Shown here: positions 1 to 5,264 of the stretch, piece by piece
Position numbering within the stretch: the first letter of the stretch is position 1
How the letters are laid out: the number at the start of each line of letters is the position of its first letter
Assembly: GCA_030639395.1 (NCBI GenBank)
Contig: DAOWCW010000039.1
Span: 1 to 7,485 of the forward strand
Length of the DNA stretch: 7,485 nucleotides
Reading direction: 5' to 3'
Origin: an archaeon
GTDB taxonomy: Archaea; Nanoarchaeota; Nanoarchaeia; Pacearchaeales; GW2011-AR1
The notes under the pieces: generated by a model
What the model saw: only the letters and a program-made list of their open reading frames with translations
Told to the model about the DNA's origin: nothing
The model's database searches: none
Made by a program: the position numbers and the translations under genes

Positions 1-196
1 GGTTTACGGAGTAAATCATGCAACTTGTTGCCGAAGTCTCTGCTTTTTTCTGGGAAGATGAATCATGGGTTCGATTTGGTTTACGGAGTAAATCATGCAA
101 CTTGTTGCCGAAGTCTCTGCTTTTTTCTGGGAAGATGAATCATGGGTTCGATTTGGTTTACGGAGTAAATCATGCAACTTGTTGCCGAAGTCTCTG
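1..196. repeat. 77-bp direct tandem repeat, two full copies plus a 42-bp partial copy
   Basis: Copies start at 1, 78 and 155, each beginning GGTTTACGGAGTAAATCATG. The first two are identical over 77 bp. The third matches only its first 42 bp (to 196) and then changes to unique sequence. The unit holds a short inverted repeat, CAAC-TT-GTTG, and two AATCATG words. Its length is not a multiple of three, so successive copies are read in different frames and a coding role on the plus strand is unlikely. The array reaches the left edge, so the true copy number is unknown. Perfect identity suggests recent amplification or an assembly effect at a contig end. The geometry (42 shared plus 35) is CRISPR-like, but the two would-be spacers are identical. 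Confidence 0.95.
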
Positions 197-2181: not shown

Positions 2182-2224
2182 AATTTTGATTTTTACCAAG
2201 AACTAACCGCTAAAAATCAAAATT
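2182..2224 (-). terminator. Perfect 14-bp inverted repeat with T-rich arms at the end of the MoxR-VWA cluster
   Basis: AATTTTGATTTTTA (2182-2195) and its exact reverse complement (2211-2224) flank a 15-nt loop. The outer arm overlaps the TAA stop of the VWA gene at 2223-2225. On the minus strand the stop is followed immediately by TTTTGATTTTT, the oligo-T context used by archaeal RNA polymerase for termination. Because the repeat is perfect, T-rich runs are present on both strands and it could act in both directions. Confidence 0.6.
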
Positions 2225-3146
2225 ACGGCAAAACCCTAAATCTAAAATTATGCAAAACCCAAAGTAGCGTCAACATCAAAATCGCACCAATCAAAAAATA
2301 AAAACTCAAATCAACAGTAACCTCTCTACTCATCTTATTCATCAAACTATCAAACAATAAATCAAAGTCCTCAACATCCCGAACCCTAAAAAATTCACCA
2401 CCAGAATTAAACGCTAAAGACTTCAAAACATCTTCATCAACTTCAGAAATCGTATTAAACCCTGTAATCCCACCTTCCTCACTTCCAACAGCAATAGTAT
2501 TCACAGTCAACTTATTTCGATTAATATATTCAATCACCCTCGGAACATCCCCAACATTCAACTGCCCATCACTAATCAAAATCACCGCCTTCATCTGCCT
2601 ATCCCCAAAAAGCTTATCCGCACCAATTAATGCATTATAAATATTAGTCCCCTGAACCTCTCCATATTTAATCGCATCAAGTGCAATATTCACCTTAAAC
2701 TTATTACTATCCAAAACTTGCAAAACACTAGCATCCCCCGAAAATTCCAAAACTCCAACCTCAACTCCAATCGGCAACAACTCCACAAACTTTTTCGCAC
2801 CACTCCGAGCAGCCTCAAGCCGATTCGGATAAAGATCATCACTAGACATACTACTTGACGAATCCACCGCAATCACATATGAAAAAACCGAAGTATCCGC
2901 AATAAAAGAAATACCCGTCCCAGCCAAAGCCAAAACCAACAAAATCAAAACCAACAAATTCATATAAAGTGCAAAAAAATTCTTCGAAAAAAACTCAACA
3001 TCATAAAATCTTTCCATCGCTTCAAAATTAGAAAACACAACCGCCTTTCTCTTGCTATAAATCAAGCTAAAAAAATAAACAAAAACAAAAAGCGGAACTA
3101 ACAACAAAAATCCTAAAAACTTCGGATAAAGAAAAACTAACTCCAT
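2223..3146 (-). CDS. Membrane-anchored VWA-domain protein, BatA-like
   Basis: This 307-residue protein has hydrophobic segments at about 8-30, 59-83 and 281-299, and a von Willebrand A domain at about 88-270 between the second and third. The MIDAS metal site is complete: DSSSS with Asp95, Ser97 and Ser99, Thr167 in GTNIYNAL, and Asp193 in LISDG. The KRK after segment 1 and the arginines after segment 3 suggest those ends are cytosolic, placing the VWA domain outside the cell. The layout matches Bat (aerotolerance-type) proteins that work with MoxR ATPases; in those systems VWA proteins bind partner proteins through a metal. GGAGG lies 7 nt before the ATG and an in-frame TAG directly precedes it, so the start is firm. 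The gene lies downstream of moxR and DUF58 but is separated from them by a structured G-rich spacer. Confidence 0.88.
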   Translation of the reverse strand: MELVFLYPKFLGFLLLVPLFVFVYFFSLIYSKRKAVVFSNFEAMERFYDVEFFSKNFFALYMNLLVLILLVLALAGTGISFIADTSVFSYVIAVDSSSSMSSDDLYPNRLEAARSGAKKFVELLPIGVEVGVLEFSGDASVLQVLDSNKFKVNIALDAIKYGEVQGTNIYNALIGADKLFGDRQMKAVILISDGQLNVGDVPRVIEYINRNKLTVNTIAVGSEEGGITGFNTISEVDEDVLKSLAFNSGGEFFRVRDVEDFDLLFDSLMNKMSREVTVDLSFYFLIGAILMLTLLWVLHNFRFRVLP

Positions 3147-3153
3147 CTATAAA

Positions 3154-3158
3154 CCTCC
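3154..3158 (-). promoter_or_regulatory. Shine-Dalgarno sequence of the VWA gene
   Basis: GGAGG on the minus strand lies 7 nt before the ATG at 3146. Together with the one at 5233 it shows that genes inside the cluster use leadered, SD-dependent initiation, while single genes nearby appear leaderless. Confidence 0.75.
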
Positions 3159-3159
3159 T

Positions 3160-3332
3160 TATTAACACCTCGAGCAAGATGCCAAACCTCGGGGTCAGCA
3201 GAGCCATGCCCAATTGGGGCCAACCTCTTGTAATTTCTCATGTAGCAACCCCCACCAACCCGGGCAGCAAAGCTGCCCTACCGAAACCCCGAAATACCAA
3301 AACCCCGAAACCCCACGAATACGAAATAAAAG
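3160..3332 (-). other. G-rich structured intercistronic island, possible ncRNA, cis-element or dispersed repeat
   Basis: This segment between DUF58 and VWA is clearly more GC-rich than the genes around it. In mRNA sense it starts with G-runs at 3314-3311, 3306-3303 and 3290-3287 set in repeats of TTTCGGGGTTT. Then comes a perfect 7-bp hairpin, GGGCAGC-loop-GCTGCCC (3278-3262), and a GTTGGTGGGGGTT stretch. The palindrome CCCAATTGGG follows inside a possible AGAG...CTCT stem. Its last part, ACCCCGA (3195-3189), can pair with TCGGGGT copies at the start, which would enclose the island as one fold. The G-runs could also form a quadruplex. I could not fit a tRNA or other known RNA to it. It also holds a 34-codon reading frame (ATG at 3241) that ends inside the VWA gene start. 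Confidence 0.45.
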
Positions 3333-3346
3333 ATTTCATATTCGTG
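3314..3346 (-). terminator. 14-bp stem-loop over the DUF58 stop codon
   Basis: CACGAATACGAAAT (3314-3327) pairs with ATTTCATATTCGTG (3333-3346), with a 5-nt loop and a single G-U-type mismatch. The TGA stop of DUF58 (3338-3336) lies in the first arm in mRNA sense, and the loop contributes CTTTT. It could slow termination of translation, protect or define an mRNA end, or act as a partial terminator before the G-rich island. Which of these applies cannot be told from sequence alone. Confidence 0.5.
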
Positions 3347-4241
3347 CCCCCACTGCACGACCACGCAAAAAACTAGAAACCGCAATAACAAAACTCTTAT
3401 CACTAACTAATTCCAATAAATCAACACGCGACTTCCTCATCATCTCCCTAATCATCATCTTCTGCCTTAAAACATTTTTCCGATATTTATCCCTCGCAAT
3501 CGCAGGATCCAAAACCATTTGCTTCCCAGAATAAGGATCCTGCACCGCAAACTGACAATTCGAGTCAGGCAAATCCTCATCCAACCTATCCCTAACCATA
3601 ACAGCCAAACTTTCAAACCGCGTCCCCATCAATTTCAAATTAGCCAAACTCTCCTTCTTCGTCCGAATAAAATCCGACACCAAAATAAAAATAGTATACG
3701 GAGATTTAACAGTTTGAAGCACATGATTTACTGCCTTATCTATATCAAACCCACCGCCATACAAACTAGAATCCGCCAAAAACTTTGTAAACAAAGCAAA
3801 CTGATTCTTAGTCCGAGCAGGCCTCAAAAACTTAACAACTTTATCACTAAACATTACCAATCCAATCCTATCCCCAGAACCCAAAACCAAATGACTAAGC
3901 GACGCAACAAACTCAGCAGCATACTCAGCCTTCAACTTATCCCCAGAACCAAAAAGCATACTATTCGAAACATCAACCAAAAAATAAACATTCAACTCCC
4001 TCTCCTCAATATACTTCTTAGCTAAAATCTGATTAGACCTCAAACTCGCCTTCCAATCAATTAAACTCGCATCGTCATCCTGCTGAAACACGCGATAAGA
4101 ATCAAACTCCAAACCTTTCCCTCTAAAAATATTCTTATACAAAATCTTCTTAACCGGAAACTTCTGCATCGCATTCTCAAACTCCGCAATCGCCCTAGGA
4201 AAATTCAAAACAAACTTACCCCTATTAGAAACTTCTGTCAT
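3336..4241 (-). CDS. DUF58 family protein with degenerate VWA fold, MoxR partner
   Basis: This 301-residue soluble protein has the DUF58 signature at about 43-68, read as GLEFDSYRVF followed by DDDASLIDWKASLR. A VWA-like fold follows, with DVSNS (Asp90, Ser92, Ser94) and VSD (Asp190). The position where a MIDAS Thr is usual (GGT) reads GGGFD at 162-166, so the metal site looks incomplete. Many bacterial DUF58 proteins have N-terminal membrane helices; none is visible here, so it is probably cytosolic. DUF58 genes usually sit beside moxR and their products are thought to act with the ATPase in assembly or activation of envelope complexes. The ATG follows the TAG of moxR with no gap, and no clear SD is seen, so translation is probably coupled. 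The C-terminal region (about 250-275) is rich in Lys, Arg and Met. Confidence 0.88.
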   Translation of the reverse strand: MTEVSNRGKFVLNFPRAIAEFENAMQKFPVKKILYKNIFRGKGLEFDSYRVFQQDDDASLIDWKASLRSNQILAKKYIEERELNVYFLVDVSNSMLFGSGDKLKAEYAAEFVASLSHLVLGSGDRIGLVMFSDKVVKFLRPARTKNQFALFTKFLADSSLYGGGFDIDKAVNHVLQTVKSPYTIFILVSDFIRTKKESLANLKLMGTRFESLAVMVRDRLDEDLPDSNCQFAVQDPYSGKQMVLDPAIARDKYRKNVLRQKMMIREMMRKSRVDLLELVSDKSFVIAVSSFLRGRAVGARI

Positions 4242-5222
4242 CTACGGAACACTAACCCTGCCAAGAATTTGCTTAATCACCTTATCTGTAGTAATCCCCT
4301 CAGCCTCAGCCTCATAATTTAAAATAATTCTATGTCTCAAGACAGGATAAACAACCTCCCTCACATCTTCCGGAATAACATAATCTCTACCACTCATCAA
4401 TGCCTCAGCCTTAGACGCAATATAAAGAGCAATCGAAGCCCTAGGGGAACCACCATAAGAAATATACTTTCCAAATTCCCAGTCCTTATTCCGCGACTCA
4501 CCAACAATCTCAACAATATACTCCTCAATCACTTCCGAAACAAAAACATCCTTTACCCTCTCTTGTGCATCTATAATCTTCTTGGGATTCAAAATAGCCT
4601 TCAAGTTAAAACTCTCAAAAGTCTTAGTCGTTGTATTTTTATTCAAAATCCCTTTTTCCTCTTTAGGCTCAGGATAATCAATCAACAACTTAAATAAAAA
4701 TCTATCAATCTGAGCCTCAGGTAAAGTATAAACCCCACTATTCTCAACCGGATTCTCAGTAGCCATAACAAAAAAAGGTTTAGGCAAAACATGAGTCTCC
4801 TTAGCAATAGTGACCTCCTTCTCCTGCATAGCCTCCAGTAAAGCAGACTGCGTCTTAGGGGGACTACGATTAATCTCATCAGCCAAAACAAAATTCGTAA
4901 AAATCGGACCCTTCTCAACCTTAAAACCCTTTTCTGGAGTATAGCTCATAATACCAGTAATGTCCGTCGGCAACAAATCAACAGTAAACTGAATCCTCTT
5001 CATATCACAACCAAGAACCGTCGCCATCGATCTAACAATCAAAGTCTTCGCAGTACCAGGAACACCCTCAACCAAAACATGTCCATTACAAAGAACCGCC
5101 CGCAAAATCCCATGAATAATCTCTTTTTGCCCAACAACAATATTTCCCATCTCCTTCTCAATATCAGACAAAATCCTCATAATATCAATATCTTTTTTCT
5201 TACTCACCATTTTTTTCATCAT
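4242..5222 (-). CDS. moxR: MoxR-family AAA+ ATPase
   Basis: Counted from ATG at 5222 this is 326 residues, normal for MoxR. It shows Walker A GVPGTAKT (53-60, Lys59), Walker B VLADEIN (112-118, Asp115-Glu116) followed by RSPPKTQSALLEAMQE, sensor 1 ATENPVE with Asn157, the arginine-finger segment LPEAQIDRF with Arg174, and sensor 2 GGSPRA with Arg261. A C-terminal lid domain completes it. MoxR ATPases act as chaperones that insert metals or remodel partners together with VWA proteins, and both expected partners (DUF58, VWA) follow directly. The frame is open further up to a TTG at 5252, but that would put the good SD GGAGGG (5238-5233) inside the gene. From this SD, ATG at 5222 is 10 nt away and is preferred; ATG at 5219 is also possible. 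The stop abuts the DUF58 start. Confidence 0.92.
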   Translation of the reverse strand: MMKKMVSKKKDIDIMRILSDIEKEMGNIVVGQKEIIHGILRAVLCNGHVLVEGVPGTAKTLIVRSMATVLGCDMKRIQFTVDLLPTDITGIMSYTPEKGFKVEKGPIFTNFVLADEINRSPPKTQSALLEAMQEKEVTIAKETHVLPKPFFVMATENPVENSGVYTLPEAQIDRFLFKLLIDYPEPKEEKGILNKNTTTKTFESFNLKAILNPKKIIDAQERVKDVFVSEVIEEYIVEIVGESRNKDWEFGKYISYGGSPRASIALYIASKAEALMSGRDYVIPEDVREVVYPVLRHRIILNYEAEAEGITTDKVIKQILGRVSVP

Positions 5223-5232
5223 CTTTTTATTA

Positions 5233-5264
5233 CCCTCCAAAAACCCCGCCAAGCCCCCAACCCC
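5233..5264 (-). promoter_or_regulatory. G-run cluster containing the moxR ribosome binding site
   Basis: In mRNA sense the 78-nt spacer before moxR contains GGGG, GGGGG, GGGG and GGAGGG separated by 2, 6 and 8 bases, a plausible four-tract G-quadruplex. The last tract is the Shine-Dalgarno sequence, so folding would compete with ribosome binding. Just upstream is a direct repeat, AGGTCAGAGGTC. A TATA-like GTATATAC (5315-5308) at the end of the preceding gene might drive an internal start. Regulation is inferred only. Confidence 0.45.

What the first reader, a model, noticed from the sequence alone, without database searches (positions are those of the whole stretch)
3160..3332. G-rich, self-complementary island between DUF58 and VWA
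In an AT-rich operon this stretch has several nested pairings: a perfect 7-bp hairpin, the CCCAATTGGG palindrome, and ACCCCGA at one end matching TCGGGGT copies at the other. It also has a quadruplex-capable set of G-runs. Its composition differs from both flanks and it splits genes normally kept together. It could be an undescribed structured RNA controlling the VWA gene, an independent ncRNA, or a short mobile repeat of MITE or REP type. I suspect it is present in more than one place in related genomes, but I have not searched.
Basis: partly seen in the sequence, partly recalled or inferred. Interest (0 to 1): 0.7.

Follow-up and report, generated by a model that had tools for sequence, protein, structure and literature searches.

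The report
Tiny hairpin repeats invading archaeal genes
The odd stretch between two genes is a patchwork of two very short repeated DNA pieces that are scattered through genomes of tiny uncultured archaea, where related copies also sit inside essential genes and add a few amino acids instead of breaking them.

Summary
It is a lineage-specific insertion built from two dispersed repeat families; in relatives DUF58 and VWA mostly overlap. The 3' half (3191-3220) is a copy of a 27-30 nt, two-hairpin element ("F1"): 94 exact core matches in 25 of 200 genomes of one archaeal order (reversed control 0), and 0 of 300 sampled genomes elsewhere in the phylum. Of 117 copies studied, 86 lie in open frames, mostly one sense reading (SPRDDSGEP / ALxGHDSGEP) but also antisense ones: in-frame insertions in genes such as gyrA, topA, polB, proS, secD and kae1. 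Among 120 listed HIT homologues 117 lack the insert, two have 10 residues, and one has a second element nested inside the first. Both hairpins covary. The 5' half (3279-3346) is a quasi-palindrome plus a TTTCGGGG-like array ("F3"), dispersed in one relative (G173), also in-frame in RLI, PGK, LeuRS and IleRS. Y1 transposase and reverse transcriptase do not track F1; how it moves is unknown. It works like Rickettsia palindromic elements or mitochondrial GC clusters, but is shorter and archaeal.

The parts
3191..3220 (-). F1 copy, 30 nt: hairpin 1 GCCC(3220-3217)-CAATT-GGGC(3211-3208), then ATG, then hairpin 2 around loop TGCT (3200-3197)
   Evidence: Covariance model match 3189-3223, 48.2 bits, E 3e-13; other copies in 25 of 200 genomes of the order; stem statistics
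3279..3310 (-). F3 array, four degenerate 8-nt units TTTCGGGG TTTTGGTA TTTCGGGG TTTCGGTA
   Evidence: Tandem repeat; dispersed in genome G173
3314..3346 (-). Quasi-palindrome: upstream arm 3346-3333 is the 3' end of DUF58 with its stop codon, downstream arm 3327-3314 is its inverted copy, 3 nt before the array
   Evidence: same layout at 6 of 11 arrays examined in G173
3262..3278 (-). Perfect 7-bp hairpin GGGCAGC-TTT-GCTGCCC directly after the array
   Evidence: counterpart with changed loop GGGCAGTTATGCTGCCC in L192 of G173
3154..3160 (-). Shine-Dalgarno-like AAGGAGG of VWA, outside the repeats
   Evidence: Read
3336..4241 (-). DUF58 protein gene
   Evidence: Pfam PF01882, E 2e-38
2223..3146 (-). 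VWA protein gene
   Evidence: Pfam PF13519 / PF00092
4242..5252 (-). MoxR-type AAA ATPase gene
   Evidence: Pfam PF07726, E 4e-59

Best explanation
The island is a composite insertion of two dispersed hairpin micro-elements (F3, then F1) at a junction where the two genes ancestrally overlapped or nearly so. F1 is a 27- or 30-nt DNA element with two covarying hairpins that has spread through genomes of one archaeal order. Shown: dispersed copies, covariation, in-frame presence in genes, absence from most homologues, one copy nested in another. Inferred: it spreads as a DNA or single-strand hairpin by copying into new sites; copies in genes survive where the length is a multiple of three and the site is a tolerant polar loop, and they are translated, not spliced out. 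In the window, between genes, the copy is most likely neutral; VWA keeps its own ribosome-binding site. The moving agent is not identified; my preferred guess is a hairpin-based template-switch or recombination process rather than a Y1 transposase.
For: F1 core: 94 matches in 25 of 200 genomes of the order, reversed control 0; 32 matches in 5 of 7 genomes, control 0. Hairpin 1: 87 of 117 copies with a full 4-bp Watson-Crick stem against 26.7 expected when partners are swapped; arms TCCC/GGGA 37, TCCT/AGGA 27, GCCC/GGGC 13, GTCC/GGAC 5. Hairpin 2: variable pair TA 88, CG 22, against CA 3, TG 3, AA 1. Genic copies occur in sense and antisense readings, so it is not a protein motif. Solved homologues show a gap at the insert for HIT, Kae1, P-type ATPase and GyrA. 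HIT: 117 of 120 listed homologues lack it; P0123 carries a 9-residue copy inside the 10-residue one. 80 of 86 genic copies have a length divisible by 3. F3.
Against: No target-site duplication was convincing (best k=2: 24 against 15.2 expected, the best of 49 border choices). No candidate enzyme was found; Y1 transposase and reverse transcriptase do not track F1. Some half-unit arrays (L064, L098, L120, L125, L153) are uneven and need tandem duplication as well as, or instead of, nested insertion. Some hairpin 2 positions do not pair in many copies (C4-S13 is CC in 40 of 117; R3-C14 is AC in 103). 5 of 12 F3 arrays examined lack the strong upstream hairpin. At least one exact core match (L146, G095) has no hairpin 1 and is probably chance. 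The window's own genome is not held, so its other copies could not be counted.
Confidence: 0.82

Rival explanations
1. REP/RAYT- or MITE-like: F1 is a non-autonomous element moved in trans by an IS200/IS605-type Y1 transposase or by another transposase.
For: Size (27-30 nt), hairpins and dispersal match REPs as defined in the passages of PMC12306157 that I saw. Y1 transposases do occur in the order: 20 of 50 genomes.
Against: Y1 in 11 of 25 F1-bearing and 9 of 25 non-bearing genomes (p 0.77); none found in G002, G004, G006 or G094, which hold many copies (draft genomes, so absence is not proof). REPs are described as seldom overlapping coding regions, whereas 86 of 117 F1 copies lie in open frames. 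Other transposase classes were not tested.
Confidence: 0.2
2. Host-driven origin without any enzyme of the element: replication template switching and slippage at hairpins and G-rich arrays make and multiply the units.
For: In F3 the upstream arm is host sequence and the downstream arm its inverted copy, 3-5 nt before the array, in 7 of 12 arrays against 2.9% of 664 control windows. Uneven half-unit arrays in F1.
Against: F1 copies share a common sequence at unrelated sites, and nested copies belong to another subtype than their host copy; local template switching alone does not explain long-range spread.
Confidence: 0.3
3. A structured RNA or leader that controls VWA, or an independent ncRNA.
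For: Covarying hairpins; same orientation as the operon in the window.
Against: Absent at this junction in the resolved relatives and, by the covariance model, in L001-L006; no Rfam match; minus-strand fold z -0.65; most copies lie inside coding genes.
Confidence: 0.05
4. A protein-level linker motif (SPRDDSGEP) duplicated between genes, not a nucleic-acid element.
For: 68 of 86 genic copies use one reading, a polar acidic peptide.
Against: Intergenic copies (23 of 117), antisense readings GSPESSLG and AQQSHPLG, and covariation of both stems.
Confidence: 0.03
5. Micro-introns removed from the RNA.
For: Insertions sit in essential genes and are structured.
Against: 80 of 86 genic copies have a length divisible by 3 and keep the frame open, which splicing would not require. 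No tool test for splice motifs was made.
Confidence: 0.04

Closest known systems
Rickettsia palindromic elements (RPEs)
   Same: Dispersed palindromic repeats of several families inserted in-frame into unrelated genes and translated as part of them (passages of PMC10969869).
   Different: RPEs are about 150 bp and bacterial; F1 is 27-30 nt, with two small hairpins, in archaea of one order; no sequence relation was tested.
Yeast mitochondrial GC clusters (GC42) and double-hairpin elements
   Same: Short GC-rich hairpin elements in AT-rich genomes, with constrained stems, merger and shuffling, and an unresolved way of moving (passages of PMC4478555).
   Different: GC42 is 42 nt, mitochondrial, most GC clusters are intergenic and carry a putative AG target duplication; F1 is mostly in genes and shows no clear duplication. 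Double-hairpin elements: seen only as a term in listings.
REP sequences / REPINs
   Same: 20-40 nt hairpin repeats in many copies (passages of PMC12306157; REPIN paper seen only as listing).
   Different: REPs seldom overlap coding regions; F1 mostly does, and Y1 transposase does not track it.
Small dispersed repeats of cyanobacteria (SDR5)
   Same: Very small mobile repeats of 20-30 bp (recalled, not read).
   Different: Not compared here; recalled only.

Membership tests
Rickettsia palindromic elements | Element of about 150 bp | tested here: not met
   F1 is 27 nt in 65 and 30 nt in 30 of 117 copies
Rickettsia palindromic elements | In-frame insertion into unrelated genes | tested here: met
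   86 of 117 copies in open frames; gaps in homologues
Rickettsia palindromic elements | Sequence of a known RPE family / Rickettsia host | tested here: not met
   Hosts are archaea by the record titles of the loci; RPE sequences were not compared
REP / RAYT | Short hairpin repeat in many copies | tested here: met
REP / RAYT | Extragenic location | tested here: not met
   23 of 117 copies classed intergenic, 86 genic, 8 unclear
REP / RAYT | Associated Y1 (RAYT) transposase in the genome | tested here: not met
   11 of 25 bearing against 9 of 25 non-bearing genomes; none found in several copy-rich ones (drafts)
MITE | Terminal inverted repeats and target-site duplication | tested here: inconclusive
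   Two internal hairpins but no terminal inverted repeats were seen; no clear duplication
MITE | Parent transposon | not tested
   Only Y1 transposase and reverse transcriptase families were searched
Mitochondrial GC clusters / double-hairpin elements | Short GC-rich element with conserved hairpin stems | tested here: met
Mitochondrial GC clusters / double-hairpin elements | Mitochondrial genome | tested here: not met
   Archaeal genomes
Known structured RNA (Rfam) | Match to a curated family at gathering score | tested here: not met
   0 matches in the window

The most novel reading that the evidence does not exclude
These archaea carry a class of genomic micro-parasites without an enzyme of their own: at least three unrelated hairpin repeat families (F1; F2 around GGGCACGAGAACCT; F3 = snap-back copy of the host gene plus a telomere-like TTTCGGGG array) that spread by replication template switching at hairpins and G-rich arrays, and that are small and polar enough to live in-frame inside essential genes. 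In F3 the hairpin arm would be copied from the host gene itself, a footprint of the mechanism.
Probability: 0.3. Interest if true: 0.9.

Novelty: new variant of a known kind. Interest (0 to 1): 0.75.

Why it matters
Palindromic elements living in-frame inside genes are best known from Rickettsia. Here the same phenomenon appears in a small-genome archaeal lineage with much smaller units (27-30 nt), several unrelated families, and stepwise nesting visible at single loci such as HIT and Kae1. That makes two open questions directly testable by comparing states at orthologous sites: how elements under 50 nt move, and whether they are a source of new protein loops. It also warns that gene models and alignments of these archaea contain repeated foreign inserts.

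Tried and rejected
Rfam on the window: no match. Island against phage records: no match. DUF58 relatives in viral contigs: none confirmed. Viral contigs with the exact F1 core: 6 stretches in two scans, GC 0.38-0.66; by eye none has hairpin 1, so I judge them chance. Y1 transposase and reverse transcriptase: no association with F1. Target-site duplication: not convincing. Chance as the source of F1: rejected by reversed-pattern controls, 0 of 7, 0 of 200 and 1 match in 371 genomes. VWA leader RNA: rejected. Protein motif: rejected. Papers on Pacearchaeota repeats or in-frame insertions in DPANN: no paper held both 'Pacearchaeota' and 'repeat element', and nothing relevant in the listings; preprints and most subscription journals are not in that library. 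Alignments of RtcB and eL31 to solved structures began after the insert, so they do not test it. My guess that the GSCLV gene is an RNase P protein is recalled and got no Pfam or NCBIfam match.

Full report
WHAT IS THERE. The window encodes MoxR (4242-5252), DUF58 (3336-4241) and VWA (2223-3146), all on the minus strand. All described motifs exist; GC is 0.52 against 0.377 for the window. Singly the motifs are weak against shuffles (5.7% and 12.5% of 1000), and the transcribed strand folds no better than shuffles (z -0.65). A stronger feature was missed: 14-nt inverted arms at 3314-3327 and 3333-3346.

IT IS A LINEAGE-SPECIFIC INSERTION. The seven DUF58 relatives found in genome contigs are archaea; three record titles say Candidatus Pacearchaeota, four only 'archaeon'. 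Their DUF58-VWA gaps are 52, -1, 103, 19, -1, -1 and 1 (L001-L007). In a second set of 30 loci my script resolved 14 (seven of them from the same genomes as before), with gaps from -17 to 103, eleven of them 1 or less; 16 were not resolved. The window's gap is the largest seen, and the ancestral state is overlap or near-overlap.

THE 3' HALF IS A DISPERSED ELEMENT (F1). blastn of the island against six relatives hit other places with its positions 111-147, or part of them, in four of six genomes. The core GGCATGGCTCTGSTGACCC with up to 3 mismatches gave 32 matches in 5 of 7 genomes and 0 for the reversed control. A stricter core, SATGRCYCTGSTGRSCC without mismatch, gave 94 matches (my sum of the table) in 25 of 200 genomes of the order and 0 control matches. 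In 371 genomes of the phylum it was found in 8, all 8 already known from the order; none of the 300 newly drawn genomes had it; 1 control match. A covariance model found it in 21 of 138 genomes of the family (at most 50 candidates per genome were scored, so copy counts are lower bounds). At least one exact match (G095, L146) has no hairpin 1 and is probably chance.

STRUCTURE. I collected 122 distinct copies from the fetched loci and used 117, dropping five that were too near an end or lacked the AT/AC after the first base. Hairpin 1 has arms TCCC/GGGA 37, TCCT/AGGA 27, GCCC/GGGC 13, GTCC/GGAC 5, GCCT/AGGC 3 and rarer ones. 87 of 117 have a full 4-bp Watson-Crick stem, against 26.7 when partners are swapped between copies. 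In hairpin 2 the variable pair is TA 88, CG 22, CA 3, TG 3, AA 1 (Fisher p 2e-17, which ignores relatedness of copies). Other positions of hairpin 2 support it less: C4-S13 is CG in 77 but CC in 40, and R3-C14 is AC in 103.

INSIDE GENES. By open frame (my script, longest frame, 130 codons or more) 86 copies are genic, 23 intergenic, 8 unclear. 72 are sense, 68 of them in one frame (SPRDDSGEP, SSKDDSGEP or ALxGHDSGEP), and 14 antisense; a few of the minor readings are likely wrong frame calls. Clear antisense cases are GSPESSLG in SecD and AQQSHPLG in the eL31 gene. Host genes by best family match: gyrA, RtcB, Kae1 (two loci), eL31, topA, HIT, eL32, TYW1, SecD (most of these fragments or inserted proteins score below NCBI's curated cut-offs); topoisomerase, diphthamide synthase, NUDIX, rubrerythrin, HIT, prolyl-tRNA synthetase and DNA polymerase B (Pfam); three of the ten proteins matched no family. 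80 of 86 genic lengths are divisible by 3, against 16 of 23 intergenic (Fisher p 0.006).

EMPTY SITES AND NESTING. Solved homologues align with a gap at the insert: HIT 10 residues, Kae1 10, P-type ATPase 9, GyrA 10. RtcB and eL31 alignments did not cover the site. For the HIT protein, the 120 listed of 553 homologues were aligned: 117 have no residue at the site, two have 10 (one of them is the query's own protein P0121), and P0123 has 19, reading VLNGHD[SSKDDPEGP]SGEP: one 27-nt-type element inside a 30-nt-type element. The same internal point (GATGAC^TCTGG, or GATGAT^TC) is used in L138 and L144, where host and inserted copy are of different subtype. At one Kae1 loop four genomes show SPRDDSGDP, SPRDDSDEPSGEP, SPRDDSSKDDSGEPSGEP and SPRDTQGGHENLQAGDSAEP. 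Uneven half-unit arrays (L064, L098, L120, L125, L153) show that tandem duplication also acts.

A SECOND FAMILY (F2). The foreign piece inside some F1 copies, GGGCACGAGAACCT, occurs 46 times in 18 of 180 genomes, with 1 control match. In the 20 loci fetched of these 46 it too reads in-frame in long frames, in more than one frame, as well as between genes.

THE 5' HALF IS A THIRD FAMILY (F3). The rest of the island (3224-3335) matched 4 places in genome G173 and none in the other 179 genomes searched (only 4 of 27 candidates in G173 were scored). L192 shares 75 nt at 81%, including the 7-bp hairpin with a changed loop. TTTCGGGGTTTCGG occurs 42 times in G173 (overlapping units of one array count several times), once in G005, in none of the other 178; 1 control match. 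I examined 11 G173 arrays and the window; other G173 arrays were not listed and not seen. Seven of these 12 have a hairpin of score 8 or more ending 3-5 nt before the array, against 2.9% of 664 control windows; five do not. In the window the upstream arm is the native end of DUF58, in L193 the hairpin loop is the gene's stop codon, and in L244 the upstream arm aligns with orthologues, so the downstream arm looks like an inverted copy of host sequence. Arrays lie in-frame in RLI, phosphoglycerate kinase, leucyl-tRNA synthetase and, antisense, isoleucyl-tRNA synthetase (the kinase match is below NCBI's cut-off). In the GSCLV gene of G173 the array sits in the same loop that holds F1 in G002 and G004.

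HOW IT WORKS. Shown: dispersal, covariation, in-frame presence, absence from most homologues, nesting. Inferred: DNA-level copying of hairpin units, survival in polar loops, translation. Unknown: the agent. Y1 transposase (11 of 25 bearing, 9 of 25 non-bearing genomes) and reverse transcriptase (6 of 25, 10 of 25) do not track F1. No clear target duplication. The sense bias (72 to 14) may be selection for the acidic peptide or strand-specific insertion; I cannot separate them.

COMPARISON. It works like Rickettsia palindromic elements (passages of PMC10969869) and yeast GC clusters (passages of PMC4478555), but is not filed as a member: length and host differ, and for REPs the location differs (passages of PMC12306157). 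Seven library searches turned up no description of such elements in these archaea (apart from the three papers named, listings only).

LIMITS. The window's own genome is not held. The relatives are unnamed, mostly draft genomes; genic status is by open frame; E-values and p-values ignore relatedness; there are no expression data.

Noticed in passing
window 1-196: 2.5 perfect copies of a 77-bp direct repeat at the start of the window; could be biological or an assembly effect at a contig end.
   Followed up: no
L063 1476-1562 (G035): Three tandem F1 copies lie between a tRNA-like stretch and a second copy of its 3' end (AAATCCCCCCGGGGCCA), as if inserted at the tRNA end.
   Followed up: no
L009, L026, L079, L080, L089, L092 (G003): Intergenic F1 copies in G003 sit beside further palindromic repeats of the type CTTCCATRAGAAAT...ATTTCTCATGGAAG and GCACCCTCAC; the window has CTACATGAGAAATTACAAG just before its F1 copy.
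   Followed up: partly
L172-L191: Second family F2 (GGGCACGAGAACCT) occurs inside F1 copies and on its own, also in genomes without an exact F1 core such as G037 and G140.
   Followed up: partly
L003 6904-7009 (same junction in G003): The 103-base gap there also begins with a hairpin spanning the DUF58 stop (GAAGAAATC-GAA-GATTTCTTC) followed by GGGTCGCGGG, like an F3 without octamers.
   Followed up: no
L120 1330-1500 (G172): Seven left half-units TCCTCAAAGGATGAC followed by three right half-units TCTGGTGAGCCT in one gene, read as SKDDS repeats then GEPS repeats.
   Followed up: partly
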